From positions 3,380,501-3,444,500 of the forward strand of contig NZ_CP043930.1 of assembly GCF_009720525.1 (NCBI RefSeq): 64,000 nucleotides of DNA, read 5' to 3'. A program made the translations under genes and the position numbers. Positions 5,806 to 50,977 of the stretch are shown here, in pieces; positions within the stretch are counted from its first letter, which is position 1; each line of letters opens with the position of its first letter. Below the pieces are notes generated by a model. That model did no database searches. It was not told the origin of the DNA and was given only the letters and a program-made list of their open reading frames with translations. Source of the DNA: Gimesia benthica. Lineage in GTDB: Bacteria; Planctomycetota; Planctomycetia; Planctomycetales; Planctomycetaceae.

Positions 5806-6888
5806 ATGCATCGTCATCCCTTCTTTACGTACAGCCTCATCCTGCTGGTAGTCTCTTCTGCGCATGTTCGTGCCGCCGAGGAGCAGACTCCGGTAAACAC
5901 CATTCTCACCCAATGGTCGGCCGCTTCGCGCTTTCTGTCTCCGGTCACACCGCAGTCCACGGTCGAGCAGTTCAAACAGCAGAACCAGGCTTATTTCAGC
6001 GGACACGAACTCGCACTGTTCTCCGAGTTTCAACAACCGGTTTCCCTCGATAAACTGAAAACCGAATACCGCTGGAAACTGATGAGTCAGTCTCAGAGCA
6101 GAATCGTCCTGCAGGGACAACCGCAGGACGCACTTACCCGCCGACTCTGTCGCCCTTTCGAACTCCAGATCAACGCCCGCTCCATGCTGCCGGAATCGCT
6201 GATGTTTCTGACACGAGAGTCAGCTCAGAAAGACCAGTTCGCTTCAATTGAGCTGACGGCGTTGAAAGTCACTCCAACCACTCGGATTCACACCAGCCCG
6301 GAACCGCAGTTCGTCAGACAGACAGTCGCGAAAGCGGTTTTCCCAGCTGCACAACTGGTACCAGCGGGTCAGTCTCCGATCAAACGGGTTGCTTTTACCA
6401 GTGATAATGACACCGAACGAAATCCAACAGAACGCCTGCAGATCGAGAAGCTGGTGACACGCTGGATTACAGAAACATCCCGTATCGATTCTGTACGGTT
6501 GGGTAACGGTATAACCATCTTCAAACGCAATCAGCGACAAACTGACGGGAAGCTGCTGTCGACTTACCGTAGTGCTTCAGACTCAACGGTCCGTGAAAAA
6601 CAGGCATTGCAGGAAGTACTGCCCGGCTGGTTGATTGACGTCGATCAGAAGTCATTTCAGATCGAATCATTCACCATTGAGCTGGATGCAGAGTCCGCTG
6701 AAGCAGCGTCTCCCTGGTTTGTCACCTTGAAGCTCAAGCCTCATCCGGATGTCCCCCGGCCCGACTGGGAAAGTGTGGAACTGGAATTCAGCAGCAGACA
6801 GGCCCTGCCCATCCGCATCAGTGAGACCAGGAATGATCGTATCTCTGAATTCCTGCTGTCGGACGTCCAGGTGCACTACGCGAAATAA
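5806..6888 (+). CDS. Exported protein of unknown function
   Basis: The 360-residue product starts with a signal peptide ([18 protein letters not shown], likely cleavage after VRA). The rest is a soluble mixed alpha/beta sequence without cysteine pairs, repeats or recognisable catalytic motifs. It resembles the many planctomycete secreted proteins of unknown role. Its last 71 nt overlap, on the opposite strand, the 3' end of the exonuclease gene. Both frames stay open and protein-like up to their stops, so the convergent overlap appears genuine. Confidence 0.65.
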
Positions 6889-7723
6889 AATCGTATCCGC
6901 CTTTATTCCTCGGGGGCTCCCAGTCACCCCAGTGCTGCAGATAATGTTGATACGCTTTACTTTCGTTTTCCCCTGCCTCGCGTTCCAGATAACGGTAAGC
7001 CTCGGTAACGATGTCCTGTTCCTGTTCCAGGCTCAAGTGACCGGTCAACACCCGTGATCTGAGAAATACGAAGTAGGTGTCCAGGACATCACAACGACAA
7101 TAGTCATTGATTTCATCTGCCTGCCCTGCATCGTACATCTCCTGCACCTTGGAACCGTCGATGCCGGTCTTGCCCGGCTTGCCGATCAGATTCGCCAGCA
7201 GATTCAGCCCGCCCGTCATGCGGGCAGCGCCGAAGTTGGTAAACATGTCCATCAGATCGATGTGCGCGTTCGTATTATAACGATTACGAGACTGATCGAA
7301 GCTGCGGGCATCGACGTTGAACCATTCCGGTAATGCAATCCCATAGCGATACGCGGCCAGTTCCAACACCGGCAGGTCGTAGCCCCTGCCGTTAAAGGTG
7401 ACGAACGTCGGCTGTCCATAATGCCGCCAGCCCTGCCAGAACTTACCCGTAATCACATGCGGGCGATATTCGGGAGCATCCAGCACCGTCAAGTCCTGCA
7501 GACGATAGTCGGCTGTCAGTTTGGCTACCGCCACGGAAATCGGCAGCATAAATGTAGCCGGAATAAAGTTGCTGCCCGTTGCCTCAATCTGCTCTTCCTG
7601 ATATTTCGCCAGTGCATCCCCGGGTGAGAGCCCTTCGCCCGGATAACGGACCCGGGAAATCAGGTCCCCATCGGCGATCGCTTCGACATCAAATACGAGA
7701 TAAGCTACTTGAGACTGGGACAC
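6818..7723 (-). CDS. Predicted 3'-5' exonuclease, PolB-like (DnaQ fold)
   Basis: The 301-residue product carries the three exonuclease motifs of the DEDD superfamily in the PolB-like form (PF10108-type). Exo I is LVFDVEAI (D12, E14). Exo II is [13 protein letters not shown]. Exo III is [10 protein letters not shown], with the last acidic residue. It should degrade DNA from the 3' end using two metal ions, in the cytoplasm; the physiological role of this subfamily is not established. The start is GTG at 7723, with no in-frame ATG nearby and only a weak ribosome site. The last 71 nt overlap the convergent exported-protein gene. Confidence 0.85.
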
Positions 7724-7921
7724 GTTTTTACTCGCTTTTTCGATCTAAATAAGGATAATAGCAGTACTTAACATACAAACCCGATCAGAACTGCCAGGTC
7801 TGATCTCGTCCGACTGGGCTGAGGTGACAAACGGCCCCTTCCAATCGGTTCTGCTGATAAGTATAAACAATAAACAGCGTTTATAGCAGTTTGGTTTTTT
7901 CTTGATAAGGCTGTGGTGGAC

Positions 7922-8995
<1,074 letters not shown>

Positions 8996-9096
8996 GATCA
9001 GACAATCAGCGCGGCTCAACACCACTAAGTAAAACAATACAAGAGTACGTCTCCATTTTTGCCTGATGTTACAGGTAACCTGAATACAGGCCCGTC

Positions 9097-10245
9097 ATGT
9101 CGATTCCCGCTGCACAACGGATTTTTCTGGATAACAATTCGACCACACCACCGCTGGATGAAGTCATTGACCTGGTGGCTACGGAATACCGGACTCACTA
9201 TGCCAATCCGGGAAGCGCCCATGCAGACGGACGTCAGTCGCGCCGCGTCCTGGAAGATGCCCGCGAACTGCTGGCCTCACTGGTAGGCGCTCATCCCCAG
9301 GAAGTCATCTTTACCAGCGGAGGCTCCGAATCGATCAACCTCGCGATCCAGGGTTTCCTCCCCGGGACGGCGGGGGAAATCGCGCTCTCCGCGGGAGAGC
9401 ATCCGGCAACCGTCAATACAATCCGCAGACTGGCGCCGCGGGGTATCAGGCAGAGAGTTATCCCCCTGGAATCCGATGGTCGGATTGATGTCGCAGCTCT
9501 GGAAGAGTTCGACTGGCAGCAGATTCAACTGGCGACACTGATCCTGGCTCATAATGAAACCGGCGTCATTCAGGATGTCGCTCCACTGGCAGCAATCTGC
9601 GAGAAATACCGGATTCCCCTGCACCTGGACGGCGTGCAGGCGATTGGAAAAATCCCGTTCCATTTCCACGATTCCGGCGCTACCGCAGTCAGTCTGGCAG
9701 CTCACAAATTTCATGGGCCGCGAGGCGTGGGTGCACTGATCGTGAAAGAGAATGCACGATTACTCCCCCAGATCACCGGCGGTCATCAGGAACGAGGCAA
9801 GCGGGCGGGTACGGAACCTGTTGCCCTGGCCGCGGGGATGGCATGGGCACTGGAGTGTGCCATCCGCGATCACAGACAGCGATCAGAACAGATGGCCGCC
9901 CTTCGCGATCGCCTGCAACAGGGCCTCCAGGAACATTGCCCGCCGGTCGTGATCAATGGTTCGCTGGAGCACCGGTTACCGAACACATTGAATATTTCGT
10001 TCCCTGGACTGGACGGGGAGGCGCTGCTGATCTCCCTGGACCTGGCGGGCATTTCCTGTTCCCTGGGCAGTGCCTGTGCCAGCGGTTCCCGGGATCCCGC
10101 TCCGGTTCTGCTGGCGATGGGCTGTCCCGAGCCGGTCTATCAGTCTGCTGTCAGGCTGAGTCTCTCGTTCCTGAATACAAATGAGGAAATCGAGGAAGCG
10201 ATCCGCCGGATCAGCAGGGTCGTGCACCAGCTCAGAAGTGCATAG
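9097..10245 (+). CDS. Cysteine desulfurase, NifS/IscS type
   Basis: This 382-residue PLP enzyme takes sulfur from L-cysteine as an enzyme-bound persulfide for Fe-S clusters and thio-cofactors. The N-terminal IFLDNNSTTP, FTSGGSESINLAIQG and AHNETG are diagnostic. So are LDGVQAIGK and the PLP-lysine segment AAHKFHGPRG (near residue 203). The active-site cysteine is C327 in GSACASGS, a short class I-type loop. No scaffold gene (iscU or nifU) is adjacent, so whether it serves general Fe-S assembly or a tRNA thiolation route cannot be told. The small downstream gene is convergent. Confidence 0.92.
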   Translation: MSIPAAQRIFLDNNSTTPPLDEVIDLVATEYRTHYANPGSAHADGRQSRRVLEDARELLASLVGAHPQEVIFTSGGSESINLAIQGFLPGTAGEIALSAGEHPATVNTIRRLAPRGIRQRVIPLESDGRIDVAALEEFDWQQIQLATLILAHNETGVIQDVAPLAAICEKYRIPLHLDGVQAIGKIPFHFHDSGATAVSLAAHKFHGPRGVGALIVKENARLLPQITGGHQERGKRAGTEPVALAAGMAWALECAIRDHRQRSEQMAALRDRLQQGLQEHCPPVVINGSLEHRLPNTLNISFPGLDGEALLISLDLAGISCSLGSACASGSRDPAPVLLAMGCPEPVYQSAVRLSLSFLNTNEEIEEAIRRISRVVHQLRSA

Positions 10246-10267
10246 GCACAGGAAACAGTGCCCGGGG

Positions 10268-10540
10268 TTATTCCCCGGGATCGTCAAAAATGGTGAACTG
10301 GGGCATGGGCAGCTCAGATTCCGCCAGTTCTTTTAATTGGGCTTCAATAGTCTGGATGCGACTGGCAATCAGTTCGCGACGATGCATCCACTTCTGTTCC
10401 CAGGACTGGAACATGGATTTCAGATTTTCAGATTCGACTGCTGAGTCATGACGGGCTTTCTGAATTTTTACAAGTGATCCTCCTAATCGTGATTGGGCTT
10501 CCTTAACCTGCTGACTGATGTGTTGGGGACACAAAGGCAT
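10268..10540 (-). CDS. Small coiled-coil protein of unknown function
   Basis: The 90-residue charged product has no signal peptide or membrane segment. Heptad-like spacing of hydrophobics (about 12-75) predicts a helical coiled coil, ending in an acidic tail (IFDDPGE). The ATG at 10540 is preceded by GGGAG at suitable spacing. It is convergent with the cysteine desulfurase gene, 22 nt away. Family unrecognised. It is kept as a gene because of the ribosome site and helical composition. Confidence 0.5.
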   Translation of the reverse strand: MPLCPQHISQQVKEAQSRLGGSLVKIQKARHDSAVESENLKSMFQSWEQKWMHRRELIASRIQTIEAQLKELAESELPMPQFTIFDDPGE

Positions 10541-11388
10541 GCGATGCTGCTCCCTAAGGTATGCGATTTATGATTATGGTCTGCTGAGGATGATTTAATC
10601 CTGGCAAGCGAATGGACCGGTGCAGGTGAACTATGATTCTTCTTATTTATTCCATCAACCGTTGCGACATCATCTGTCTGACTATTCAACCACCTGCGGT
10701 TGCGGATTCGCTTTTGGTAAGATATGAAAAATGGATCGTCATTGCCGATCAGCGATCTTGAGCAATAAGCGAAGACTTTTTGCATGAACTGTTTCAGTGA
10801 GAGTGCGAACTAAGTTCATTTGTTACGACCTGCATTCATCAGAAGAATCAGCATTAACCCGTATAATCAATAACTCTGCGACAGCAGGCATAAAAAGTTG
10901 TCACCTTCGCCTGTGAACGTGATTCGTATTAACGCAAACGCAATCTGCCTGGAAACAGATTAATGATTCCTCTCTCGCCGTTATTTTATCACCAACGAAC
11001 CACTGACAATTGTTGCGACCTGCGCGACCAGTAAGTGAGTCAATCCGCACTCCCCCAATGCGCGCGAGTCACTCCCTCAAACCAACAGGCTGAATCATCG
11101 AGACAACACCAGCCAGAGTCGCTCCAGGCCCTGAGTCTTTCCCGGCATCGCGCAGAGGATGCTTCCTGGTGTTTCATAACGACGACTTCGCCATCCACTT
11201 GTAGAGGAGATCCTCACGAGCCGGCAGCGCCTGTCACTCGCTGAACGACTGACTCTTTCCCCCCTCTGGAATTCTATTCAGATCAAGCTGAGCCGAGTCG
11301 GTTTTCGAGCAGCCTGTCAAAATATGACGGTTAGCCCGACCCTGCCCGTTTCATCGCCGAGGCAACGTCCTGTCAGGTAAAACGTAAC

Positions 11389-11436
11389 GATCATGACGAC
11401 TGACTCGGTCTTTCTGTCGCTTCGCCTGTCATGATC
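11389..11436. repeat. 9-bp inverted repeat upstream of flagellin
   Basis: GATCATGAC at 11389-11397 pairs perfectly with GTCATGATC at 11428-11436 across a 30-nt loop. The loop is long for a terminator and no T-run follows, so a protein-binding site or RNA structure is more likely. It lies about 430 nt upstream of the flagellin start. Confidence 0.35.
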
Positions 11437-11591
11437 ACCATTTTCCTCTCTCACGTTAAGGCAGGTGCAGCCGAACTTTTGATGAAGGATCGGATAACAG
11501 TTACAGGTCATCCCTTCCTGCATGGGAAAACGGAGAGATCGGTTTATTTTCAAAAAAACACCAGAGTCGCTTAATTTACCCAAAGTAACAT

Positions 11592-11599
11592 TCCGATAG
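11592..11599 (+). promoter_or_regulatory. Candidate sigma-28-like -10 element of flagellin
   Basis: TCCGATAG matches the flagellar sigma factor -10 consensus GCCGATAA at 6 of 8 positions. An AT-rich TTAATTTA lies 12-13 nt upstream at 11571, where the -35 would be. It sits 267 nt before the flagellin ATG, implying a long leader. The same CCGATA core precedes the glycosyltransferase fusion and fliD. Confidence 0.35.
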
Positions 11600-11866
11600 T
11601 TAAGGAGCGTGAATGCGCAGTTTCCCTCTGTACATTCATTGCATCATCTGAATCTGGAATGGTTTTGTTATGGAAAGATAAGCCACATCAGTTCGAGGCA
11701 TCCTGTCACGACAGATGACATTGATCCACATTTCTCGGATATGACAGGAACGAAAACTAATGTTTGCGGGCGGTTTCAGCACTGCTCGAGAACCTGAATC
11801 ATATAGTAGCTCTAACCTTGAAAACCCCTAGGGAGCTTTCATTACAAGTGAGAAAGGCTATTTGCC

Positions 11867-13678
11867 ATGACACGAATTAATACTAACGTAGCCGCGCTGA
11901 GAGGCTTACGTAGTTTGAATAAGTCTACCAACCTGCTGGACACTTCATTGACCCGTCTGTCCACCGGTTTGAAAATTAACTCTGGTAAAGATAACCCCTC
12001 CGGTTTGATTGCCAGTGAAACCCTGCGTTCACAGGTTTCCGCGATTGAACAATCTATCAAAAACTCAAACCGTGCCAGCAACGTGATTGCCACCGCTGAC
12101 TCGGCTCTGGGCGAAGTCACCAACCTGCTGAACCAGGTTCGTGGTCTGGTTCAGGAAGGTTTGAACAAAGGCGCTCTGTCTCAGGACGAAATCGAAGCGA
12201 ATCAGCTCCAGATCGATACAGCGTTATCAGCCATCAACCGTATTTCAGCGAACACCTCATTCGCTGGCGACAAGCTGATCGATGGAAGCAAAGCTTTCCG
12301 TACTCAGGCTTCTGCCACCGATGCTGCTAAACTGTCTGACTACCAGGTCAACGAAGCCGTATTCGGAACCAGCAGCACCATCACTCTGGATGCAACCGTT
12401 GTAACCGCTGCCACTCAGGCCAGCCTGGATTACAGTGCTGTTGACGGCGGTCTGGCCAGCGCAACCACCATCGAAGTAGGTGGTAAGAGCGGTAGCCAGG
12501 TGCTGTTCCTGGGTGCTTCCAGCTCACTGGATAACGTCCGAGACGCTGTGAACGGCGTGAGTGACATTACCGGTGTGACTGCAACGAAAACCAACAAGGT
12601 TGCCAGCAACCTGTCCTTCAACAACGCCAACGCTACGAACTCCGGTCTGACCTTCACAGATGCCCGGACTTCAGACAGTGTTCTCGGCGATTCCGGACAG
12701 AACATCCGCGTTCAGTTTGTCGACCCGTCTGCCAACAGTGCCGCTGCTAACATCTCATTCAGTAATAACAATACCGATATTACGATTGTGGTTAGCCTGG
12801 GAACACTGGCAAACGGTGACATCTCATCAAACGCGACTTCCATCAAAACGCTGCTGGATGGTAACGCTGACGTGAACGCTCTGATCTCCACCGCCGCAGA
12901 AGGTGATGGTTCAGGTGTCGTCGAAGCAGAAGCTGCTGCTGCCCTGTCCGGCGGAACCAACGCATACCTGACTTTCAGTGCCTCCAACTACGGTGCTGAT
13001 GAATTCGTCGATGTGAATGTACTCAACGGTAGCTTCGACACAGTGGACAACATCACCGACGGCAATGCCCTGAAGCGTGCCATTGGTTCGGACATCGTTA
13101 CTCGGATCAACGGGCAGGTTGCCCAGGGTTCCGGTCTGACTGCCAACATCCGTTCGCAGCAGCTCGATGCTTCGTTCTCCTTCACCGCAGCTGCCAACGT
13201 TGCCGACAACACGGCCAGCCTCACCATCACCGGTGGTGGTTCGCTGTTCCAGATCGGTCAGGACGTCTCTGCCGCTGGTCAGATTGGTATCGGAATCGAA
13301 GCTGTTAACACAGCCCGTCTGGGTGGTGTTTCCGGTAAGCTGTTCGAAATCGGATCGGGCGGTGGTAAGAGCCTTCTGGACGTCGGTCCTTCTGTTCCTG
13401 GTTCCGACCTGGTGAACATCATCGAAGAATCGATCAACCGTGTATCGACTCTCCGTGGTCGTCTGGGTGCGGTTCAGAAGAACGTGATCGAAACCAACGT
13501 TTCATCACTGGGTGTGGCTCTGGAAAACATTTCCGAAGCCCGTAGTCAGATCGTGGATACCGACTTCGCTGTCGAAACCGCAAACATGACCAAAGCTCAG
13601 ATTCTGAACCAGGCTGGTATTTCGGTTCTCTCGATTGCCAACCAGAACCCACAGCAGGTATTGAGTCTGCTCAGATAA
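11867..13678 (+). CDS. fliC: Flagellin
   Basis: The 603-residue filament subunit has conserved ends and a variable middle. Residues 1 to about 140 form the D0/D1 helices (MTRINTNVAALRGLRSL, TRLSTGLKINSGKDNPSG). About 505-603 is the matching C-terminal part, ending QNPQQVLSLLR. The central 360 residues are Ser/Thr/Asn-rich beta repeats that should face the solvent. They include a flagellin hook IN-like segment (TTIEVGGKSGSQVLFLG) and offer many possible O-glycosylation sites. There is no signal peptide, as expected for type III export. GAGAAAGG lies about 9 nt before the ATG. A strong hairpin follows the stop, and filament-modification genes come next. Confidence 0.96.
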   Translation: MTRINTNVAALRGLRSLNKSTNLLDTSLTRLSTGLKINSGKDNPSGLIASETLRSQVSAIEQSIKNSNRASNVIATADSALGEVTNLLNQVRGLVQEGLNKGALSQDEIEANQLQIDTALSAINRISANTSFAGDKLIDGSKAFRTQASATDAAKLSDYQVNEAVFGTSSTITLDATVVTAATQASLDYSAVDGGLASATTIEVGGKSGSQVLFLGASSSLDNVRDAVNGVSDITGVTATKTNKVASNLSFNNANATNSGLTFTDARTSDSVLGDSGQNIRVQFVDPSANSAAANISFSNNNTDITIVVSLGTLANGDISSNATSIKTLLDGNADVNALISTAAEGDGSGVVEAEAAAALSGGTNAYLTFSASNYGADEFVDVNVLNGSFDTVDNITDGNALKRAIGSDIVTRINGQVAQGSGLTANIRSQQLDASFSFTAAANVADNTASLTITGGGSLFQIGQDVSAAGQIGIGIEAVNTARLGGVSGKLFEIGSGGGKSLLDVGPSVPGSDLVNIIEESINRVSTLRGRLGAVQKNVIETNVSSLGVALENISEARSQIVDTDFAVETANMTKAQILNQAGISVLSIANQNPQQVLSLLR

Positions 13679-13724
13679 CCCCTGAGTAAGTCGATTGCCG
13701 ACTGAAAACAATCTGATACGAAAC

Positions 13725-13764
13725 AGAAAAGCACTATCCATCGCAAGGCGGATAGTGCTTTTCT
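13725..13764 (+). terminator. Rho-independent terminator after flagellin
   Basis: AGAAAAGCACTATCC (13725-13739) and GGATAGTGCTTTTCT (13750-13764) form a perfect 15-bp stem with a 10-nt loop. The distal arm ends in a CTTTTCTC pyrimidine run. It starts 47 nt after the flagellin stop and separates it from the fusion gene, so flagellin is probably monocistronic. Confidence 0.85.
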
Positions 13765-13870
13765 CATTTACCCATCCTGCCTGTTCTCCAGTCAATTGCG
13801 GAGTGTTTTCCCCTGTTTCAGGCGGATTTGCTTCCGGTTCTAGAAACTGCTTATCTTGCCACCCGGCTTA

Positions 13871-13878
13871 GCCGATAC
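13871..13878 (+). promoter_or_regulatory. Candidate sigma-28-like -10 element of the glycosyltransferase fusion gene
   Basis: GCCGATAC matches the flagellar sigma -10 consensus GCCGATAA at 7 of 8 positions and lies 106 nt before the ATG of the fusion gene, after the flagellin terminator. The -35 region (CTTAT around 13851) is only weakly consensus-like. Confidence 0.4.
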
Positions 13879-13983
13879 AGACAGAATAACCGGAAAACTC
13901 AGCCTGCCCATCCAGATCAGGCTGCCAGTCTCAGCTCAGATTGAAAACCGTTTCAATCAGCTTCATGATTGAAAGAAGAAGTC

Positions 13984-16900
13984 ATGCCTTCACCTCAGGA
14001 ATTACTGACTACTGCAGTCAAGCAGCATCAGGCGGGGAATTTGCCTCTGGCAGAGCAACTCTACCGCGAAGTGCTGCAGCATGACCCGGGACAGGTCGAC
14101 GCATTGCACCTGCTGGGTGTGGTTTATCTGCATCTGCAACAGTTCGAGAAAGCCATCGATTTCATCACCCGAGCCATCTGCCAGAATGATGGAATCGGCT
14201 CGTTCTTTTCCAACCGGGGCGCGGCCTGCAAAGGACTGGGCAAATTAGACGACGCCATTACAAACTACGAACGTGCACTGGAGCTGGAACCGAAAAATGC
14301 CGCGTTTGTTTACAATCTGGCCATCACCCTGGCTCTGGCAGGGGATCAGGAACAGGCAATCCAGGCATACCGGCGTGCACTGGAACTCAAGCCCCTCTAT
14401 CGGGAAGCATTGATCAACCTGGGCAATCTGCTTGCAGAAACGGATCAGCTTGAAGAGGCTATTTCGATCTGCCGTCTGGTTGTGGAACAGGCACCGCAAC
14501 TGCATCTCTCGCATTTCAATCTGGCTAACACCTTGGCGAAAGCCGAAGATCCAGAAGCAGAAGACGAATATCAGGCGGCTCTGGAACTCGCCCCCGGACA
14601 TCTGGATACACTCAAAAACTATGCGGTCTTTCTCTCTGCACGCAATCGAAATGAGCAGGCGATCGAGATCCTGCGAGAAGCAGCAGCCCTGCAACCGGAC
14701 TCCTGGGAGATCCTTAATAACCTGGGCATTCTGTTCGCGGAACAGGAAAATTTTGAGAAGGCACTCTCCTGCCTGCGCGAAGCACAGCGTCTGACCCCGG
14801 AGAATGTGGATATTCAGTTCCACATCGGAAAAGCCCTGGAAGAATCAAAACAGATTCACGAAGCCATGGTCGCATACCGGGAAGTGCTCAACAGACATCC
14901 TAACCATCCCGGTGCGGCGTTTCATCTGGGCTCTCTGGTCGCCTCGGTTGGTGACTACGATTATGCGTATGACATTTTTCAAAGTCTCTACCAGAGCGAT
15001 CCCACCAATACGGCTTCATTGTTCGGCATGGGTTCCGTCCGTATGCGACAGAACAAAATCGGTTCTGCCGTTGGTTACTTTGAATCGCTGGTCGCCCTGG
15101 AACCGGAACACCTGCAATCACGCCTGAACCTGCTTGAGCTCTATTCGCGACAGTTAAGAAATAATGAAATCGAAAAACATGTCGCCGCAGGCCTGGAGCA
15201 TCATCCGGAAAATGCCGTGCTCTGGAACTACCAGGGACATATCCAGAACCAGAACAGACAGGTGAAGAAAGCACTGAAGAGCTTTCTTAAAGCGGTTAAA
15301 TTTGACGACACCTATGTGCCCTCCTACTGTAATCTGGCATCCATTTATCAGACGATGGGCATGTTCCAGGAAGCCCGACAGGCTTTGGAAAAGGCATACG
15401 AGCTGAATCAATTGCCCGAATATCGTCTCGCGCTGGCCAGCTTGCTGCCACCCATCTCCGCTTCTCTGGAAGCGATTCAGGAAGTGCGTAAATCCTTCGT
15501 AAATAAAATCGAAGAGATGCATGCCGACCAGGTCCAGATCGACGCCTCAATCAAACTCACACCGGGTACGTTTTATCTCGCCTACCAGGGATTTAACGAC
15601 CGTCCGGTGATTGAACGCATGGCCGAGCTGTATCAGATTAAAAACAATCTAAGCTGGAATCCTGCAGAATCAAACGTCCACAGAGACGGTCGTATCCGGA
15701 TCGGATTCATCTCCAGCCTGTTCTACAATCACACGATCGGCTCCCTGATGAAAGGGATCATCCGCAATTTCGATCGTGAAAAATTTCATGTAATCACGAT
15801 CTCTCCTACGAAATATTCGGACGACACAGCCAAAGAAATCCGTAATCACTCTGATGAGTATGTCTTTCTCGGCGTCGATCTGCAGCAGGCAAATGAGACT
15901 CTCAAAAGCCTGGAACTGGACGTCCTGTTCTATGCCGACATCGGGATGGACCCGTTCATCTTCTCACTGGCAACCACCCGCCATGCGCCAGTGCAATGCG
16001 TCACCTGGGGGCACCCGGTCACTACCGGCCTGAAGACGATCGACTATTTCATTTCAAGTGAACTCGTCGAAGCGGAAGACGCAGACGACCATTACACCGA
16101 ACAACTGGTCAGACTGAAAGACCTGCCCGCTTACTATTACCGCCCTGCCCTCCCCGAGGAAATCAAACCCCGGGCTGCCTTTGGTCTGTCTGACGATGAT
16201 CACATCTATGCCTGCCCCCAAACGCTGTTCAAATTTCATCCGGAATTCGATCAGGTACTGGCCGGGATCCTGCGAAAAGACCCACAGGCACGCATTGTGA
16301 TGATTCGGGACCAGACCTCCCGGTGGAAGGATCTGCTCGTCGAACGGTTCCAGAAATCCTTCCCCGACGTGGTAGACCGGATTCTCTTCCTGCGTGGCAT
16401 GTCGACACCCGACTTTTTGAATCTGATTTATATCTCCGATGTCATGCTCGACCCGTTGCACTTCGGAGGCGGGAATACATCGTACCAGTCTATGGCAATC
16501 GGCACACCAATTGTGACACTCCCCTCCAGCTATATGCGAGGTCGCGTCACCCTGGCGATGTATAAGAAAATGGGGCTCACGGACTGTATCGTCTCTTCGG
16601 TTGAAGAGTATATCGATCTGGCTTGCCGGATCGGTTCGGATGAAAACTTCCGCGATCAACTCCGCCTCAAAATACTTGCTAAAAGTCAGCTTATTTTTGA
16701 AGACATCAGTGCGGTGCGGGAACTGGGAAGTTTTTTCGAGACTGCACTGCAAAACCACATTACAGATCGTTCAAACTCACATACTCTGACCTGTTCGGAT
16801 ACTGAAAAGGACCATGGCATGGATGCTGAATCACAGCCGTCAGAAAACTTAGATCGTTCTAACATTTACGATACGGCTATGCGAAACTATACCTGCCCGG

Positions 16901-18177
16901 CCTGCAGTTATCACATCGCAGTTCAGTTCTACGATGGTGGACTGCTGCCTTTAACCACACTGGCCTGGCCTCAAAGCACGGAAGAAGCACAGGCCATGGA
17001 ACGCCTGCCACATGATTTTATGCGGTGTGTGGACTGTGGCCATATCTCGAATGCGGCCTTCGATTATGCGAAGGTCCCCTACTCCGACAAACCCAACCTG
17101 ATGTTCAATAAAGGAGCCATCTGGTCTGAGCACCTGCAGAAAGTCTGTGATCTGATCGCTGCCAGCCTCCCCGAGAACCCGACAGTCGTCGAAATCGGTT
17201 GCGGGGAAGGACACCTCATCCGTTCGCTGGCTAGGAAAATCCCTTCCGGAAAATTCATCGGCTTCGATCCCAACGCGGAAATCGAAACCGAGGGGGGACT
17301 GATTGAAGCACGCACCATGCTGTTTGAACCCGGACAGCACCTGGCTGAACTCCAGCCCGATCTGATTATCAGTCGGCATGTCTTCGAACACCTGATGAAC
17401 CCACTGGGCTTCGCTCAGGAAGTGGCTTTCGCCGCCAATGTCGCGGGTTGTGCAACGCGTCTGTTTATCGAAGTTCCCTGTATCGACGGCGTTTTGGCAG
17501 CCGGTCGTACCGTGGACTTCTTCTACGAACACAATTCTCACTTCACTTCACAGTCGCTGGAACGGTTGTTGACCCGTTGTGCCACTCATGTGGATCTGAT
17601 CGAAACCAGCTACAATGGTGAAGTCATTTATGGCATGGCCAGTTTCGAACCACAGAAGCACCAGGTCGAACTGGCACGTCAGGCGATCGCCTTCCAGAAG
17701 AAGGCCCGACAGTCAGCTGCTCAACTGGCAGTCCAATTCGAAGAGCTGGCCAATACCGGTAAACGGACTGCCATCTGGGGAGGGACCGGTAAAGCAGCCG
17801 CCTTTATCAACCAGCACCAGTTGGATATGCAACGTTTCCCCACCGTCATCGATTCTGACATGAATAAAGCTGGCACATTCGTGCCGGGTACGGGACAGGA
17901 AATTCACTTCCGCGACTGGTTACTGGATCACCCGGTCGATGTCATTCTGATCGCCACACAGTGGCGGGCCGCGGACATCGTTCTCGAAATTCAGCGTAAT
18001 CAGATTCCCTGTGAGACGATTCTGATCGAGTATCAGGGACAACTGATCAACTATTTCGATGATAACCATCCCTACCGTCGTGAAGAAACCCGCGGTGGCT
18101 CACAGATTCCCCGCCCTCAGTTTCTCTCACAAAAAGAACGACGTCTCGACTCGATCGACGCAGATCAGAACCAGTAA
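13984..18177 (+). CDS. TPR / O-GlcNAc-transferase-like / C-methyltransferase fusion protein
   Basis: The 1397-residue product has three parts. Residues 1 to about 490 are a TPR superhelix. About 570-920 matches the SPINDLY/OGT-type glycosyltransferase fold (GT41-like): RIRIGFISS, CVTWGHPVTTG, TLFKFHPEF, DVMLDPLHFGGGNTSYQ and IVTLPS. About 970-1390 resembles sugar C-methyltransferases: a zinc-type N-domain with CPAC and CVDCGH, a SAM motif VVEIGCGEGH near 1068, and a C-terminal domain with TAIWGGTGKAAAF. The expected role is O-glycosylation of a protein plus sugar methylation in the cytoplasm. Its place between flagellin and fliD makes flagellin the likely substrate (inference). ATG 13984 is preferred over TTG 13969 because the TPR begins there. 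Confidence 0.88.
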   Translation: MPSPQELLTTAVKQHQAGNLPLAEQLYREVLQHDPGQVDALHLLGVVYLHLQQFEKAIDFITRAICQNDGIGSFFSNRGAACKGLGKLDDAITNYERALELEPKNAAFVYNLAITLALAGDQEQAIQAYRRALELKPLYREALINLGNLLAETDQLEEAISICRLVVEQAPQLHLSHFNLANTLAKAEDPEAEDEYQAALELAPGHLDTLKNYAVFLSARNRNEQAIEILREAAALQPDSWEILNNLGILFAEQENFEKALSCLREAQRLTPENVDIQFHIGKALEESKQIHEAMVAYREVLNRHPNHPGAAFHLGSLVASVGDYDYAYDIFQSLYQSDPTNTASLFGMGSVRMRQNKIGSAVGYFESLVALEPEHLQSRLNLLELYSRQLRNNEIEKHVAAGLEHHPENAVLWNYQGHIQNQNRQVKKALKSFLKAVKFDDTYVPSYCNLASIYQTMGMFQEARQALEKAYELNQLPEYRLALASLLPPISASLEAIQEVRKSFVNKIEEMHADQVQIDASIKLTPGTFYLAYQGFNDRPVIERMAELYQIKNNLSWNPAESNVHRDGRIRIGFISSLFYNHTIGSLMKGIIRNFDREKFHVITISPTKYSDDTAKEIRNHSDEYVFLGVDLQQANETLKSLELDVLFYADIGMDPFIFSLATTRHAPVQCVTWGHPVTTGLKTIDYFISSELVEAEDADDHYTEQLVRLKDLPAYYYRPALPEEIKPRAAFGLSDDDHIYACPQTLFKFHPEFDQVLAGILRKDPQARIVMIRDQTSRWKDLLVERFQKSFPDVVDRILFLRGMSTPDFLNLIYISDVMLDPLHFGGGNTSYQSMAIGTPIVTLPSSYMRGRVTLAMYKKMGLTDCIVSSVEEYIDLACRIGSDENFRDQLRLKILAKSQLIFEDISAVRELGSFFETALQNHITDRSNSHTLTCSDTEKDHGMDAESQPSENLDRSNIYDTAMRNYTCPACSYHIAVQFYDGGLLPLTTLAWPQSTEEAQAMERLPHDFMRCVDCGHISNAAFDYAKVPYSDKPNLMFNKGAIWSEHLQKVCDLIAASLPENPTVVEIGCGEGHLIRSLARKIPSGKFIGFDPNAEIETEGGLIEARTMLFEPGQHLAELQPDLIISRHVFEHLMNPLGFAQEVAFAANVAGCATRLFIEVPCIDGVLAAGRTVDFFYEHNSHFTSQSLERLLTRCATHVDLIETSYNGEVIYGMASFEPQKHQVELARQAIAFQKKARQSAAQLAVQFEELANTGKRTAIWGGTGKAAAFINQHQLDMQRFPTVIDSDMNKAGTFVPGTGQEIHFRDWLLDHPVDVILIATQWRAADIVLEIQRNQIPCETILIEYQGQLINYFDDNHPYRREETRGGSQIPRPQFLSQKERRLDSIDADQNQ

Positions 18178-18217
18178 GCAGGCATTTTCAAGACTCGCTC
18201 TGAAACAGGATTAGAAC

Positions 18218-18910
18218 ATGATTATCTTCAATTTCGGTATCCCCAACTCCGGTACGGACTGGTCACAGGCCGTCTTTAAAAAAATCTGGGAAAACCAGAA
18301 TCATACTTTCCGGGTTGAGGAACCTGCGTGTATCGAAGAATTGAATCAGATTATCGGTACGCTGAACGTTCATGAGCGCATGATTCTAAAGTTTGATCTG
18401 TTAACAGAAGAGGCGATCCAGGCAGCACAACAGGGGGCTGTCCGTCCGTTTTACCACTATCGTGATCCACGGGATGTGGTCAGTACTTCGATGCAGTTGC
18501 ATCAGACTTCTTTTTCAGATGCCGTAGAAGCCACCGTTTCCGCGTACCAGGAAATTCACCATGCACTGCCCCTGCCGGGCATTATGGTCATCCCTTATGA
18601 ACATATCGCAACTCATTCAGAAGCCCTGATCTTCCAGATGGCGACCCAACTGGGAGTTCTCTTAAAGCTGGATGTTGTTGCCCGTATTGCGGAAGAAGTT
18701 CGCGAGCTGTCTATACAACCAGCCTCATCTGAATCGGATGAACCGAAAGTGGGACAGACGGTCCGCATCGACCAGGAACATACCGCGGACACTTCGGTCG
18801 TACAACCACTGCAGATCGGGAAATGGCGCGATGAACTTTCTCAATCAGAACAGGCCATGGTGAACCGGTTCTTTAAACCTCTGGTAACACAGTTTGGTTA
18901 CCCGGAATAA
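18218..18910 (+). CDS. Sulfotransferase-like protein
   Basis: The 230-residue product has the layout of PAPS-dependent sulfotransferases. A 5'-phosphosulfate loop, FGIPNSGTDW, opens the protein. The 3'-phosphate motif FYHYRDPRDVVSTSMQ follows at about residues 78-93. A C-terminal GKWRDELSQSE matches the G-x-W-x-x-x-L segment. In most members the loop reads P-K-S-G-T-T-W; here the lysine is asparagine, so activity or donor use may differ. AGGA lies about 8 nt before the ATG. It follows the glycosyltransferase fusion by 40 nt with no terminator between, so the two are probably co-transcribed and may act on the same glycan (inference). Confidence 0.78.
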   Translation: MIIFNFGIPNSGTDWSQAVFKKIWENQNHTFRVEEPACIEELNQIIGTLNVHERMILKFDLLTEEAIQAAQQGAVRPFYHYRDPRDVVSTSMQLHQTSFSDAVEATVSAYQEIHHALPLPGIMVIPYEHIATHSEALIFQMATQLGVLLKLDVVARIAEEVRELSIQPASSESDEPKVGQTVRIDQEHTADTSVVQPLQIGKWRDELSQSEQAMVNRFFKPLVTQFGYPE

Positions 18911-19034
18911 GCTGTGCTTTACATCGCTTCAGCATTTTCAGCCAGTACAGCCGACACAATCCCTCAACTCAACCTGAGATCAAGTTCCACAGGCTGAGAT
19001 AAAACAGGCCGACTCAAGCAGCAGGTTTTAACTA

Positions 19035-19042
19035 ACCGATAA
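19035..19042 (+). promoter_or_regulatory. Candidate sigma-28-like -10 element of fliD
   Basis: ACCGATAA matches the flagellar sigma -10 consensus GCCGATAA at 7 of 8 positions and lies 82 nt before the fliD ATG. The upstream -35 region is poorly conserved (TCAAG near 19015). Confidence 0.4.
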
Positions 19043-19123
19043 ATATTGTGAGTCTGTAGTACTCCCTGCGCGGACAGATTTTGGAAATGACGAACCTCAG
19101 TAGAATCAGATCGATTTACTAAC

Positions 19124-21841
19124 ATGTCAGGCATCAGTTCCGGTGTCGGTCTGGCAACCGGATTAAACATCAATGAGATTGTAGATGCGATCATCGGCGT
19201 GCAGAAAAATGCGCTGGTGAAGTTGTCCAGCCGTGCGCAGGCTTTCGAAGCGACGGAAGGGGGCATTAAAACCCTTGAAGCCAACCTGCTGACTCTCAAG
19301 ACCGCGACTCAGAAACTGAATCTGAAAAGCACCTTCGAAACCCTGAAGGCCACCAGCTCCGATACCCAGCAGTTCAGCGTCGCTGCCAACAGTACCGCCA
19401 CCGCAGCCACTTACCAGTTACAGGGGCTGCAGACCGCTACCAACCATCAGGTTATTTCCGACGGTTTTCCCGACACCGACACCACACCCATCGGCACCGC
19501 GACCACGATTACGATTTCCAACGGCGGGGAATTGAATCAGCCCAGATTGCTGGAAGAACTCAATAATGGCGCAGGAGTGCAGCGCGGCAGCATTCGGATC
19601 ACTGACCGCGACGGACAAACCGAAATCGTCGATCTTTCCAAAACGCTGACCATCGACGATGTCGTAAATCAAATCAACCAGTCAGCCACATCGGTGGTTG
19701 CCAGCATCCAGAATGATCACCTGGTCATCAGCGATACCAGCTCCGGTTCGGGGACTCTGAAAATCAGTGAAGTGAGCGGCGGAAAAACAGCAGCCGACCT
19801 GGGAATTCTGAAATCCGTCGTTGGTCCCTCTTTTGACGGTGATTCTGTCTACCGCATCACCGAAGAATTCAAACTGTCACAAATCAACGACGGTAACGGT
19901 ATCACAACTGTCAGCGGACTGGATGATTTTCAAATTCTCGCTTCGGACGGCAGTACCTTTGATGTCAACCTGGATACTGCCCAGTCGGTCGGCGATGTGG
20001 TCGATCTGATCAATAATCATGCTTCCAACGGTGGTAATGTTACCGCAGCCGTCTCCAATAACGGACAACTGACTCTGACCGACAACACCGGTGGGGCAGG
20101 CTCCTTCACCGTCAGTGCTCTGAATGGATCACTGGCGGCCCGGGAACTGGATATCGAAACGACGGGTACAGGCGGCGTCATCACGGGCACACTCAGCGGC
20201 GGGCTGAATTCAGTCCTGCTCAGAAATCTGAATGGGGGAGTCCAGTCCGGGGGACCGGTTTTAAATGCCGGGTCGGTATACATCGAAGATGGGGCGGGAG
20301 GAAATGCCACCATCGATTTCTCTTCCGCAAAAACGCTGGACGAGGTAATCGATCTCATCAATGGCAACGGCAGTATTCAGATTGAAGCCAGTCTGAATCA
20401 GGCGGGAACCGGTATTTCCATCAAGGATACTTCCGCCGCCTCGGGCACATCGATTGAAATTCAGGACGTCAGTGGCAACCTCGCGAGCACACTCAAAATC
20501 GACACGCTGCTGGCAGATAACAAACACACGGTCGACTCCGGCTCGCTCGACCTGCGATACGTCAATCAGAATACATCACTGGAAACCTACGGAAAAAACG
20601 GGACCGAGATCCCTTCGGGTAGTATCCGCATTATCGACCGTGATGGTACCAGCTTCGTAGTTGACCTGTCCGATACAGAGACCACTAAAACCATCGGCGA
20701 TGTCCTCACGAAGATCAACGATGCCGCAGGGACCGCGGGCGCCCAGATCAATGCCCGCCTGAACGACACCGGCGACGGCTTCATCGTGGAAAGCACGGGG
20801 GGCAGCTCATTTGATGTAAAGATCGAAGAAGTTTCAGGAGGTTCGGTCGCAGCCAGCCTGGGTATTCTGGGTTCCGGAACTACCGGTGTTACCAGTCGAC
20901 AGACCACGGAAATTTCCATCGAAGCAACCGACACTCTGGCAGACATCGCCGAGAAGTTCAATGCCTCTGGAGTAGCCTCCGCTACGATCATCGACGATGG
21001 AACCGCCTTTAATTCATCACGGTTGTCGATTACATCCTCACGCAGTGGTGCAGGCGGCGAGTTGATTCTGGAAAGCGACTATGATTTCGGGTTTTCGACC
21101 TCCGTCGAAGCCAAAGACGCGTTGATCCGCATCGGCAGTAACCCCCAGACATCCTTCCTGCTGACTTCATCGACCAACAGTTTCGATGATGCCATCACCG
21201 GACTGGAAATCGATCTGCTCTCGGTCGGAGACGCACCGTCCACAATCAATGTGGCCCGCGATACATCCGGTATCAAGACCACGATAAAAAGCTTTGTGAA
21301 CTCCTACAACAGTTTTGTCGATGCGACTGATAGCCTGACAGGCTTTGATCCAGAGACAAACCAGCGCGGGGTTCTCAACGGGAACAGCCTGATCTTTAAC
21401 ATCACTTCCCGACTGGAAGGTCTGCTGACGAAAAAACTTTCCGTCAGCAACAACTCGATCAAGAGCCTGTCCGAGTTGGGGATTGTGTTCAACAGCAGCG
21501 GCAAACTGCAACTCAAAGAAAGCACGCTGGATCAGAAGCTGGCAGATGATCCCACTGCGATCACGGAATTCTTCCAACAGGAAGATCATGGCTTTGCGGT
21601 GGTGATGGATGAAGTCATCACCTCAATGACTGACCCGTTCACCGGCACATTGAAAGCACAAACAGATTCACTCCAGGCTTCTGCCCTGTCACTCAACACC
21701 CGGGTTGCGGAACTGAACGAGATTCTGGAAGCACGACGACAACGCCTGATTGAGCAGTTCACTCTGCAGGAAACGATAGTGAATCAGCTGAACTCTCAGC
21801 AAACCGCTTTGAACAGGCTTAATGCATCATCCGATAAGTAA
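19124..21841 (+). CDS. fliD: Flagellar filament cap protein FliD (hook-associated protein 2)
   Basis: FliD caps the growing filament and folds incoming flagellin. The N-terminus MSGISSGVGLATGLNINEIVDAII and the C-terminal coiled coil (ARRQRLIEQFTLQE, LNSQQTALNRL) are typical. At 905 residues it is about twice the E. coli length. The extra middle holds at least four flagellin hook IN-type units built as D-x-D-G-x-x-x-x-V-D-L ... T-x-x-D-V-x-x-x-I-N, near residues 165, 275, 390 and 505. No strong Shine-Dalgarno is seen before the ATG. fliS follows 52 nt later. Confidence 0.92.
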   Translation: MSGISSGVGLATGLNINEIVDAIIGVQKNALVKLSSRAQAFEATEGGIKTLEANLLTLKTATQKLNLKSTFETLKATSSDTQQFSVAANSTATAATYQLQGLQTATNHQVISDGFPDTDTTPIGTATTITISNGGELNQPRLLEELNNGAGVQRGSIRITDRDGQTEIVDLSKTLTIDDVVNQINQSATSVVASIQNDHLVISDTSSGSGTLKISEVSGGKTAADLGILKSVVGPSFDGDSVYRITEEFKLSQINDGNGITTVSGLDDFQILASDGSTFDVNLDTAQSVGDVVDLINNHASNGGNVTAAVSNNGQLTLTDNTGGAGSFTVSALNGSLAARELDIETTGTGGVITGTLSGGLNSVLLRNLNGGVQSGGPVLNAGSVYIEDGAGGNATIDFSSAKTLDEVIDLINGNGSIQIEASLNQAGTGISIKDTSAASGTSIEIQDVSGNLASTLKIDTLLADNKHTVDSGSLDLRYVNQNTSLETYGKNGTEIPSGSIRIIDRDGTSFVVDLSDTETTKTIGDVLTKINDAAGTAGAQINARLNDTGDGFIVESTGGSSFDVKIEEVSGGSVAASLGILGSGTTGVTSRQTTEISIEATDTLADIAEKFNASGVASATIIDDGTAFNSSRLSITSSRSGAGGELILESDYDFGFSTSVEAKDALIRIGSNPQTSFLLTSSTNSFDDAITGLEIDLLSVGDAPSTINVARDTSGIKTTIKSFVNSYNSFVDATDSLTGFDPETNQRGVLNGNSLIFNITSRLEGLLTKKLSVSNNSIKSLSELGIVFNSSGKLQLKESTLDQKLADDPTAITEFFQQEDHGFAVVMDEVITSMTDPFTGTLKAQTDSLQASALSLNTRVAELNEILEARRQRLIEQFTLQETIVNQLNSQQTALNRLNASSDK

Positions 21842-21893
21842 TACGAATAATTAAAAACGACTGAAGAACTAAATAACGAAGGGCCAACAGGAG

Positions 21894-22367
21894 ATGAATG
21901 GTAATGACTACCTGGAGAATCAGGTTCTAACCGCGAAACCCCACCAGTTGCATCTGATGGTTGTAGACGGCGCACTGCGTTTTGCTCGAAAAGCCCTGGA
22001 GGCTGCAGAATCGAGACAGTATGAACAGGCTCACTTTGCCCTGGACCGCAGTCGCGATCTGGTTGCTGAACTGATCGGGGGACTCGATCCCGGTCAACAA
22101 CCCGAAATGATTGAACAGCTCAAGGCGTTGTTCGTGTTCGTGTACGAAAACCTGAATCATGCCGATGTGAAACAGGAAGCCAGCTATATCAATAACGCTA
22201 TCAAGGTCCTCGAAATTCACCGGAAATCCTGGTACGAGCTGATGGAACGTCTGCTGGAAAGCACACCCCAGGAGCCCCGTCAGCCACAGTCGGGTCCGAT
22301 CGTGCATCCGCCGCATCAAATCGAGCAGTCAGCTCAGCCTCATCAGAGCCGCTCCTGGATCACCTGA
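21894..22367 (+). CDS. fliS: Flagellin export chaperone FliS
   Basis: FliS binds the C-terminus of flagellin in the cytoplasm and prevents premature polymerisation. The 157-residue product shows the family pattern: N-D-Y-x-x-x-Q-V-L-T-A-x-P-x-Q-L at the start, VVDGALRFARKAL, a helical core with LDPGQQPEM, and VYENLNHADVK. About 30 residues of proline/glutamine/histidine-rich tail extend beyond the usual end. GAAGG lies about 11 nt before ATG 21894; AGGAG directly abuts the start. It probably shares a transcript with fliD. Confidence 0.9.
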   Translation: MNGNDYLENQVLTAKPHQLHLMVVDGALRFARKALEAAESRQYEQAHFALDRSRDLVAELIGGLDPGQQPEMIEQLKALFVFVYENLNHADVKQEASYINNAIKVLEIHRKSWYELMERLLESTPQEPRQPQSGPIVHPPHQIEQSAQPHQSRSWIT

Positions 22368-32000: not shown

Positions 32001-32915
32001 ATGCTGTTTCCCCAATCCCGCTCACCTTACTCACCGCAAACTTCTCAATCTGCGCTGCACGTACACAAACGCGGCTTTACTCTGATTGAACTCCTGGTCG
32101 TGATTGCCATCATCGCTGTTCTGGTGGCCCTGCTCCTGCCCGCTGTCCAGCAGGCGCGCGAAGCGGCCCGTATGGCCCAGTGTAAAAACAATCTGCGTCA
32201 GATCGTGCTGGCCTGCCATATGTACGCAGATTCCAACGGCGGTTACTGGCCCCGAGCAGCCCCCGATCAACATGTCGGCTTTGGTGGTAAAAAACGCTGG
32301 CACGGCGAACGGACAACAACAGACGCCACATCTAAATTCCAAGCACATCTCGGACCATTAGCTCCATTCCTTGAACAGAATGCAGAAATCAAAAAATGTC
32401 CCACCTTCGGGAACTTTGCTGCTCACGGAACCGTTTCCAATGCCTTCGAAGGGGGCACCGGAGGTTATGGTTATAACCAGGCTTATCTGGGAGGAACATC
32501 CTGGAAATATACTTATCCCACCTGCAATATGATCGCCACCAACATGCGGGAAATCGGTAGTCTAGCCCGCACAGTCGCCTTCGCCGACTCTGCACTGGCC
32601 CAGGGATTCCCGGATCTGCATATCATCGAATACAGTTTCATCGAACCGCCGTACTTCATTGATAACTGGACCCCGACTTTCGAAGAAGCTCCCTGGCGGC
32701 CCGATCCTTCAATTCATTTCCGACATACGGGAACCGTTGCCAACATCGGCTGGGCCGATGGCCGCGTGACCTCAGCTGTCATGTCGGGTACCGGTACCTC
32801 TGCCTACGGCGGCGATCCGAAAAAATTCCAGATCGGCTGGTTCGGTCCCATGGACAGTAACGTGCTGTTTACCAATAAAGATAAGCTGGAGGCAGACATG
32901 GGAGGCGTCCAGTAA
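32001..32915 (+). CDS. DUF1559 pseudopilin-like protein heading a four-gene cluster
   Basis: The 304-residue product carries a type IV prepilin-like N-terminus: short basic leader, KRG with cleavage expected before [22 protein letters not shown], then V-Q-Q-A-R-E-A-A-R. The DUF1559 domain follows, ending with [19 protein letters not shown], the usual sample-of-glycines region near the C-terminus. DUF1559 proteins are abundant in planctomycetes and their roles are largely unknown. Starts at 31929, 31941 and 32001 are possible; 32001 leaves a leader of about 26 residues. Its stop overlaps the next gene's ATG by one base, indicating translational coupling. Confidence 0.82.
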
Positions 32916-45541: not shown

Positions 45542-45582
45542 GCATAGACCCGAATCGCTTCGAGTAGTTAAACACTTAATTT

Positions 45583-45626
45583 CCCGGTTCTACCAGTCTC
45601 TGATAGAACCGGGGATTCTTTTTTTT
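45583..45626 (+). terminator. Hairpin with T-run between DUF1559 and lipoprotein genes
   Basis: CCCGGTTCTA (45583-45592) pairs with TAGAACCGGG (45604-45613), followed by GATTC and eight T's (45619-45626 region). It looks like a strong terminator, 41 nt after the DUF1559 stop and 120 nt before the lipoprotein start, so the second gene needs read-through or its own promoter. Confidence 0.88.
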
Positions 45627-50958: not shown

Positions 50959-50977
50959 AAATCAGCCTAAATCACTC

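What the first reader, a model, noticed from the sequence alone, without database searches (positions are those of the whole stretch)
11867..22367. Flagellar locus with a built-in filament-modification pathway
Between flagellin and the FliD/FliS genes lie a protein-glycosyltransferase/sugar-methyltransferase fusion and a sulfotransferase-like gene, all on one strand. Known flagellin glycosylation loci put modifying enzymes next to flagellin. Here sugar transfer, methylation and possible sulfation are combined in two genes. The flagellin has a large Ser/Thr-rich surface domain. I infer a planctomycete filament decorated with a methylated, possibly sulfated sugar.
Basis: partly seen in the sequence, partly recalled or inferred. 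Interest (0 to 1): 0.85.

Follow-up and report, generated by a model that had tools for sequence, protein, structure and literature searches.

The report
Swappable flagellin-sugar gene cassette
A planctomycete keeps, between its flagellin gene and the gene for the filament cap, a large enzyme that probably attaches a methylated sugar to the filament plus a sulfotransferase-shaped protein that seems to have lost its active site, and related strains appear to swap pieces of this cassette, a possible way of changing the coat of the filament.

Summary
The genes are as described: flagellin, TPR–GT41–sugar-methyltransferase fusion, sulfotransferase-fold gene, FliD, FliS, all on +. The genome is Gimesia-like; the fusion is its only GT41 match. 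The order is kept in all 14 same-genus genomes sampled, own included. Twelve also carry PhyH-type and TylF-type genes, missing at this locus here. Outside the genus, 17 of 51 loci with a related methyltransferase hold flagellin, FliD or FliS. Flagellin glycosylation with a methylated sugar is the best reading. Two corrections. (1) Sulfation is doubtful: the fold is a PAPS sulfotransferase, but cofactor and catalytic residues have decayed, though the gene is under purifying selection. (2) The cassette is a mosaic: 12-22% divergent from two relatives where the window median is 3.5%, and a third relative shares one half only, with a sharp break inside GT41. Strains exchange half-gene modules. GT41–methyltransferase fusions in enterobacterial flagellin islands (PMC4875605) and the TPR–GT flagellin transferase FlmG (PMC7591256) are precedents, so this is a new variant of a known kind; no chemistry is shown.

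The parts
11867..13678 (+). flagellin, 603 aa; followed by a 16-pair hairpin at 13725-13764
   Evidence: hairpin (the scan lists it as terminator-like on the - strand; its number of terminator-like sites is at chance level)
13969..15588 (+). N-terminal TPR domain of the fusion (about residues 1-540); ATG start at 13984 is an alternative
15646..16755 (+). GT41 (OGT/SPINDLY-type) domain, about residues 560-929; H588 and K755 align with catalytic His/Lys of O-GlcNAc transferases
   Evidence: roles of the residues recalled
16894..18174 (+). C-methyltransferase-like domain (zinc-type Cys4, SAM fold, C-terminal Rossmann) similar to D-mycarose 3-C-methyltransferase and TcaB9
18218..18910 (+). sulfotransferase-fold protein, 230 aa, with a decayed active site (N10, D60, T90, no TSxxxM segment, QPLxIG for QSGxxG)
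14300..16257 (.). mosaic module 1 (TPR plus first half of GT41): the window differs from G148, G088 and G049, which resemble each other here
   Evidence: left edge is gradual, 14.3-14.8 kb
16257..18990 (.). mosaic module 2 (rest of GT41, methyltransferase, sulfotransferase-fold gene): shared with G148, differs from G088/G049
18911..19123 (+). intergenic stretch where 12 of 14 genus genomes hold PhyH and TylF genes; right edge of the exchanged stretch near 18990
19124..21841 (+). FliD filament cap, 905 aa
21894..22367 (+). FliS chaperone, 157 aa

Best explanation
It is a cytoplasmic flagellin-glycosylation cassette. The TPR arm probably docks flagellin before export (inferred from FlmG), the GT41 domain moves a sugar from a nucleotide donor to Ser/Thr (inferred from fold and conserved catalytic residues), and the C-terminal domain methylates the sugar, most likely as a 4-keto nucleotide sugar before transfer (inferred from similarity to sugar 3-C-methyltransferases). 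In most sampled Gimesia a 2-oxoglutarate dioxygenase-like and a TylF-like O-methyltransferase would add further decorations. The sulfotransferase-fold protein no longer looks able to use PAPS in the usual way; it is kept as a partner protein or has another activity. The cassette is exchanged between strains by homologous recombination in two modules between conserved flagellin and FliD genes (supported by the sequences), which would change the filament surface (inferred).
For: Domains and folds. The only PF13844 protein of the genome sits beside one of its two Flagellin_N matches. Order kept in 14 of 14 same-genus genomes, own included. Outside the Gimesia cluster 17 of 51 loci with a related methyltransferase hold flagellin, FliD or FliS within the at most 10 kb fetched on each side (11 of the 27 loci of 15 kb or more), and 34 of 51 hold GT41 within 3 kb. 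dN/dS is 0.01-0.11 for fusion, sulfotransferase-fold, PhyH and TylF genes where it could be computed. Mosaic: for window vs G088, pS is 0.46-0.80 in the fusion beyond residue 317 and in the sulfotransferase-fold gene, against 0.03-0.38 in flagellin and FliD; in the triplet window/G148/G088 the break is at 16257, max-chi 68.5, 0 of 1000 permutations reach it, highest 20.2. Possible donor pathways: RmlB at 479.8 bits and a legionaminic-acid-type cluster.
Against: No mass spectrometry, motility or mutant data. Two of five TcaB9 active-site positions (Tyr76, Tyr222; recalled) read as Val and Phe here, so C-methylation of a 4-keto sugar is not certain. No sugar-biosynthesis gene lies in the cassette. 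34 of 51 related methyltransferase loci show no flagellin, FliD or FliS, 16 of them in loci of 15 kb or more. G029 has GT, MT and sulfotransferase in a row without these flagellar genes in 20 kb. The GT-MT model is of low confidence (mean pLDDT 68.8, pTM 0.47). Of the 13 genome pairs profiled, the more distant ones are evenly divergent and show no module step.
Confidence: 0.72

Rival explanations
1. One reading: the filament carries a methylated and sulfated sugar, with 18218-18910 as an active PAPS-dependent sulfotransferase.
For: Sulfotransferase fold, profile match to cytosolic sulfotransferases, the R, P and D of the RDPRD motif kept in all 52 rows, purifying selection; 5 of 14 genus members keep the His and one keeps a P-loop Lys; a relative with intact residues stands directly behind GT and MT in G029.
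Against: In the window protein the P-loop Lys/Arg is Asn, the catalytic His is Asp, the Ser of the 3'-phosphate site is Thr in this alignment, the TSxxxM segment is deleted and the QSGxxG motif is QPLxIG, whereas 42 of 42 aligned non-Gimesia relatives keep the His and 41 of 42 the Arg (roles of the residues recalled).
Confidence: 0.12
2. The fusion modifies another target than flagellin (cap protein FliD, a surface layer or a free metabolite) and its place is only regulatory convenience.
For: GT41-clade loci of the class without the methyltransferase mostly lack flagellar genes (3 of 19 have one, against 4 of 8 with it, by the script; one of the 19, L069, does hold an MT match). FliD is next door and as rich in Ser/Thr. 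G029 has the module without flagellar neighbours.
Against: Linkage to flagellin and FliD in the whole sampled genus and in a third of the loci elsewhere; FlmG precedent for a TPR-GT that binds and modifies flagellin (PMC7591256).
Confidence: 0.13
3. The high divergence of the cassette reflects relaxed constraint or a high local mutation rate, not exchange.
For: Long repetitive TPR genes can evolve fast (recalled); other kilobases of the window are divergent too.
Against: dN/dS of the fusion stays 0.06-0.09 while synonymous divergence is high; divergence stops sharply, and G148 shares one half with the window and the other with G088.
Confidence: 0.04

Closest known systems
Enterobacterial flagellin glycosylation islands (De Maayer and Cowan 2016, PMC4875605; abstract, sections 7 and 10 and passages read)
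   Same: Insert beside the flagellin gene; GT41 (SPINDLY-type) transferases most of which also contain a methyltransferase domain; variable content, evidence of horizontal exchange in pieces.
   Different: Those lie between fliC and fliA; as a group they carry sugar-synthesis genes, lower average G+C and mobile elements; the terms tetratricopeptide, TPR and sulfotransferase do not occur in the text. Here the exchange is within single genes between near-identical flanks, and the methyltransferase is of the sugar C-methyltransferase type. Whether the two fusions are homologous end to end was not tested.
FlmG of Caulobacter crescentus (PMC7591256; abstract and sections 7 and 10 read)
   Same: N-terminal TPR domain plus C-terminal GT-B glycosyltransferase for flagellin. 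Caulobacter is one of two control genomes that ring for PF13844 (not shown to be FlmG itself).
   Different: FlmG has 596 residues; only a TPR and a GT domain are described; it needs pseudaminic acid. Donor here unknown. FlmG was not aligned to the window protein.
NDP-sugar 3-C-methyltransferases (D-mycarose 3-C-methyltransferase 4rv9, sugar 3-C-methyltransferase 5t64, TcaB9 3ndi)
   Same: Similarity over profile positions 21-375 of 456 including zinc-type Cys4, SAM and C-terminal domains.
   Different: Fused to a protein glycosyltransferase; two active-site Tyr positions differ.
Cytosolic PAPS sulfotransferases (PF00685; SULT4A1, 1zd1, is also among the fold matches)
   Same: Fold (Foldseek probability 1.00, TM-score about 0.6 by query, rmsd 5-9 A) and RDPRD motif.
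   Different: Cofactor and catalytic residues lost, wholly in the window species and mostly across the genus.
Sulfated archaellin N-glycans of Halobacterium (PMC11980604, PMC11239922; listings and abstract starts seen)
   Same: A motility filament whose glycan carries sulfate.
   Different: Archaeal, N-linked, unrelated filament.

Membership tests
GT41 protein glycosyltransferases | PF13844 match over the curated cut-off | tested here: met
   93.2 bits against 25; PDB matches to OGT, SPINDLY, NGT
GT41 protein glycosyltransferases | catalytic His and phosphate-binding Lys | tested here: met
   H588 and K755 align to the OGT His and to the mutated Lys of TtOGT, whose PDB entry is titled K341M; roles recalled
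FlmG-type flagellin transferase | TPR arm followed by GT-B domain | tested here: met
FlmG-type flagellin transferase | TPR arm binds flagellin and is needed for its modification | not testable with these tools
   needs two-hybrid or pull-down
FlmG-type flagellin transferase | nonulosonic acid donor | tested here: inconclusive
   a cluster with LegC, NeuB, NeuC, NeuD over their cut-offs and LegB and a cytidylyltransferase below theirs is in the genome at about 1.6227-1.6296 Mb, unlinked to the cassette
Flagellin glycosylation island | transferase and sugar-modifying genes inserted beside flagellin | tested here: met
Flagellin glycosylation island | variable, horizontally exchanged | tested here: met
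Flagellin glycosylation island | aberrant G+C or mobile elements | tested here: not met
   G+C 50-53% like its surroundings; one 22-base repeat pair only; mobile-element genes were not searched as such, none among the genes scanned with Pfam. Fits exchange inside the genus
Sugar C-methyltransferase (TylC3/TcaB9 type) | zinc-type Cys4, SAM and C-terminal domains | tested here: met
Sugar C-methyltransferase (TylC3/TcaB9 type) | active-site Tyr76, His181, Tyr222, Glu224, His225 (recalled) | tested here: inconclusive
   His181, Glu224, His225 kept; Tyr76 is Val, Tyr222 is Phe by my reading of the alignment
PAPS sulfotransferase | fold and RDP motif | tested here: met
PAPS sulfotransferase | P-loop Lys/Arg | tested here: not met
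   Asn in 13 of 14 genus members, window included, Lys in one
PAPS sulfotransferase | catalytic His | tested here: not met
   Asp in 9 of 14 genus members including the window, His in 5 of 14
PAPS sulfotransferase | C-terminal 3'-phosphate motif (RKGxxG; QSGxxG in this family) | tested here: not met
   QPLxIG or alike in 14 of 14 genus members

The most novel reading that the evidence does not exclude
In Gimesia a sulfotransferase has become a genus-wide pseudoenzyme (or gained a PAPS-independent activity) that works as a fixed partner of a TPR-GT41-methyltransferase enzyme on flagellin, and strains swap half-gene modules of this enzyme between constant flagellin and cap genes, giving environmental planctomycetes a serotype-like switch of filament chemistry, for instance against flagellum-binding phages or grazers.
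Probability: 0.35. Interest if true: 0.7.

Novelty: new variant of a known kind. Interest (0 to 1): 0.5.

Why it matters
It extends flagellin glycosylation islands to planctomycetes, with a one-protein transferase-methyltransferase that has unfused relatives in several phyla. It gives a natural experiment: relatives with a median divergence of about 3.5% in this region carry different enzyme modules, so module-to-glycan mapping is directly testable by mass spectrometry. It also offers a conserved sulfotransferase-fold protein with a lost active site, kept under selection.

Tried and rejected
Considered and set aside: sulfation as the working model (active site); co-variation of the flagellin central domain with the TPR module (G088 and G049 differ in the flagellin but share the TPR-GT module; the window and G088 have nearly the same flagellin, 99% identical, but different modules); gene conversion from a paralogue (one PF13844 protein in the genome); foreign origin from far away (no G+C shift). 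TylF and NDP-hexose 2,3-dehydratase gave no match in the own genome, but nothing rang in the control genomes either, so absence is not shown; PhyH has only three weak matches there (best E 7.4e-8). CDP-glucose 4,6-dehydratase: 11 matches, none over the cut-off. The GT-MT model is weak and is used only for fold identity of the GT part. CoaD and an OCD-family gene around the G029 locus say nothing on the donor. The table lists L069 as without MT; one search has an MT match there. The hairpin behind the flagellin gene is no firm terminator.

Full report
What is there. Window 11867-22367 holds, on the + strand, flagellin, a 1402-residue (TTG) or 1397-residue (ATG) fusion, a 230-residue gene, FliD and FliS. 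A 16-pair hairpin follows the flagellin gene (13725-13764); the scan calls it terminator-like on the - strand, and its count of such sites is at chance level (13 found, 12.4 expected). The fusion and the next gene are 40 bases apart, and 213 bases separate that gene from fliD, so fusion and 18218-18910 may form one transcript (inference). The fusion consists of TPRs, a GT41 domain and a methyltransferase with N-terminal cysteines of zinc type and a C-terminal Rossmann domain. Its methyltransferase part matches D-mycarose 3-C-methyltransferase and TcaB9 (profile E 7e-19 and 2e-13, profile positions 21-375 of 456; single sequence E 6.5e-8 and 2.4e-5), so it resembles sugar C-methyltransferases. 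The GT41 part matches O-GlcNAc transferases with aligned catalytic His and Lys.

Where it occurs. The genome (8.03 Mb, one contig) has one protein that matches PF13844, this one, and two Flagellin_N matches, one of them here. Named relatives place it in or next to Gimesia. Among 297 genomes of the class, 144 have some match to the GT-MT part at E 1e-10 or better, and all 14 same-genus genomes, own included, have the full fusion. The sulfotransferase-fold gene is found in 21 of 297: these 14, G029, G278 and five weak ones. In the 14 the order is flagellin, fusion, sulfotransferase-fold gene, FliD, FliS; 12 of 14 also hold a PhyH and a TylF gene before FliD (Pfam scan of one pair; the others by similarity to that pair), with iron-site and metal-site motifs (recalled) intact in the 9 and 10 aligned. 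The window genome and its near twin G148 lack both at this locus, without remnant. Outside the genus the fusion also exists in G275, G287 and G289, and as separate neighbouring GT and MT genes in G029, G077, G142 and G215. A protein search with the methyltransferase part (limited to long proteins; only the 7995 candidates sharing most words were scored) returned 60 proteins at E 1e-20 or better, most with TPR, GT41 and methyltransferase domains; 35 of them are 51-66% identical over most of the part, largely without a named organism, one labelled Magnetococcales.

Link to flagella elsewhere. A scan of one genome per species gave 56 loci with a related methyltransferase, in Planctomycetota, Vampirovibrionales, Bryobacterales, Desulfobacterota-type genomes, Alphaproteobacteria, Paenibacillus and others. 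Of the 51 outside the Gimesia cluster, 17 hold flagellin, FliD or FliS, nine of these within 500 bases of the methyltransferase, and 34 hold GT41 within 3 kb; of the 27 loci of 15 kb or more, 11 hold a flagellar gene. Other flagellar genes were not looked for. My rough expectation by chance is about 1% (estimate, not computed by a tool). Within the class, among 27 non-genus loci around the better GT matches, 4 of 8 with the methyltransferase and 3 of 19 without it hold these flagellar genes by the script (L069, counted as without, has an MT match). In a Paenibacillus locus a distant relative (28% identical) stands behind FliS with CDP-glucose 4,6-dehydratase and glucose-1-phosphate cytidylyltransferase, both over their cut-offs, which fits a 4-keto-6-deoxy sugar as substrate of this family.

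Sulfotransferase. An AlphaFold model (mean pLDDT 86.9, pTM 0.82, residues 168-192 below 50) matches cytosolic sulfotransferases (best Foldseek E 6.5e-8, a retinol dehydratase of that family; TM-score about 0.6 by query, rmsd 5-9 A in the rows shown). In an alignment of 52 sequences, 42 non-Gimesia relatives keep the catalytic His (42 of 42), the P-loop Arg (41 of 42) and the 3'-phosphate Ser (41 of 42). In the 14 genus members the P-loop residue is Asn in 13, the His is Asp in 9, and the QSGxxG motif is gone in all 14. The window protein has all of these losses. Yet dN/dS is 0.03-0.11 in the pairs where it could be computed (dS is near saturation in several and not computable in eight of 13). 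I read it as a pseudoenzyme or an enzyme with changed chemistry; the roles of the residues are recalled from estrogen sulfotransferase. Five genus members keep the His and one keeps a P-loop Lys, which speaks against a single clean loss.

Mosaic. Between the window and G088/G049 the 64 kb differ by a median of 3.5% per kb, but 14-19 kb differ by 12-22%. Synonymous differences for window vs G088 are 0.03-0.38 in flagellin and FliD, but 0.46-0.80 in the fusion beyond residue 317 and in the sulfotransferase-fold gene. G148, comparable only up to about 22.6 kb, shares the second half with the window (2-6%) and the first half with G088. The switch lies at 16257, inside the GT41 domain (residue 763), with max-chi 68.5 and no permutation of 1000 reaching it. 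The right edge is at about 18990. Of the 13 pairs profiled, G013/G008 shows a similar excess in TPR-GT (0.51-0.83, against 0.03-0.22 in the methyltransferase part), and G104/G225 a weaker one (0.39-0.85 against 0.27-0.46). G088/G049 is evenly low; the more distant pairs (for example with G033, or G281/G045) are evenly high and show no step. dN/dS is low and G+C normal, so exchange of old alleles within the genus is the simplest cause. The flagellin variable domain does not follow the same pattern. Other divergent kilobases in the window lie at 32, 44-47 and 50 kb, so the cassette is not the only such spot.

Donor. The genome has a dTDP-glucose 4,6-dehydratase over the cut-off and a cluster with LegC, NeuB, NeuC and NeuD over their cut-offs and a LegB-like enzyme and a PseF-like cytidylyltransferase below theirs, so both a 4-keto-6-deoxy sugar and a nonulosonic acid are possible donors. 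Nothing here decides between them.

Literature. FlmG (PMC7591256, abstract and sections 7 and 10) and enterobacterial flagellin islands (PMC4875605, abstract, sections 7 and 10 and passages) are the closest precedents. Searches for planctomycete flagellin glycosylation, Gimesia flagella, TPR-methyltransferase flagellin systems or sulfated bacterial flagellin listed no paper that names this locus; only titles and abstract starts were seen, some lists were cut (30 of 36, 15 of 25, 15 of 28, 12 of 94), and most subscription papers are not held. [quoted passage not shown]

Noticed in passing
window 32001-33000, 44001-48000, 50001-51000: Further kilobases with 11-29% divergence from G049 and/or G088 while most neighbours are 2-6%; the 45-47 kb stretch is partly without match in G049.
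   Followed up: no
L184 (G000:C1:1613001-1633000), about 9655-16618: Legionaminic-acid-type cluster on one strand: LegB-like, nucleotidyltransferase, NeuC, NeuB, NeuD, LegC, PseF-like cytidylyltransferase.
   Followed up: partly
G000:C1:2707795-2708193 (L158): Second Flagellin_N match in a 754-residue open frame, far from the cassette; FlgL/FlgK-like or a second flagellin, not resolved.
   Followed up: no
L061 and L062 (G217, G113): 1788-residue proteins with more than one match to the GT41 query region (seen for G113), no flagellar gene found in the stretch.
   Followed up: no
L151 and L152 (Paenibacillus): Distant methyltransferase relatives; in L151 next to flagellin, FliD and FliS with CDP-glucose pathway genes and a gene distantly like rhamnosyl O-methyltransferase.
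   Followed up: partly
L053 (G029) 6305-13244: CoaD, GT, MT, intact-looking sulfotransferase and an OCD-family gene in a row, without flagellin, FliD or FliS in the 20 kb.
   Followed up: partly
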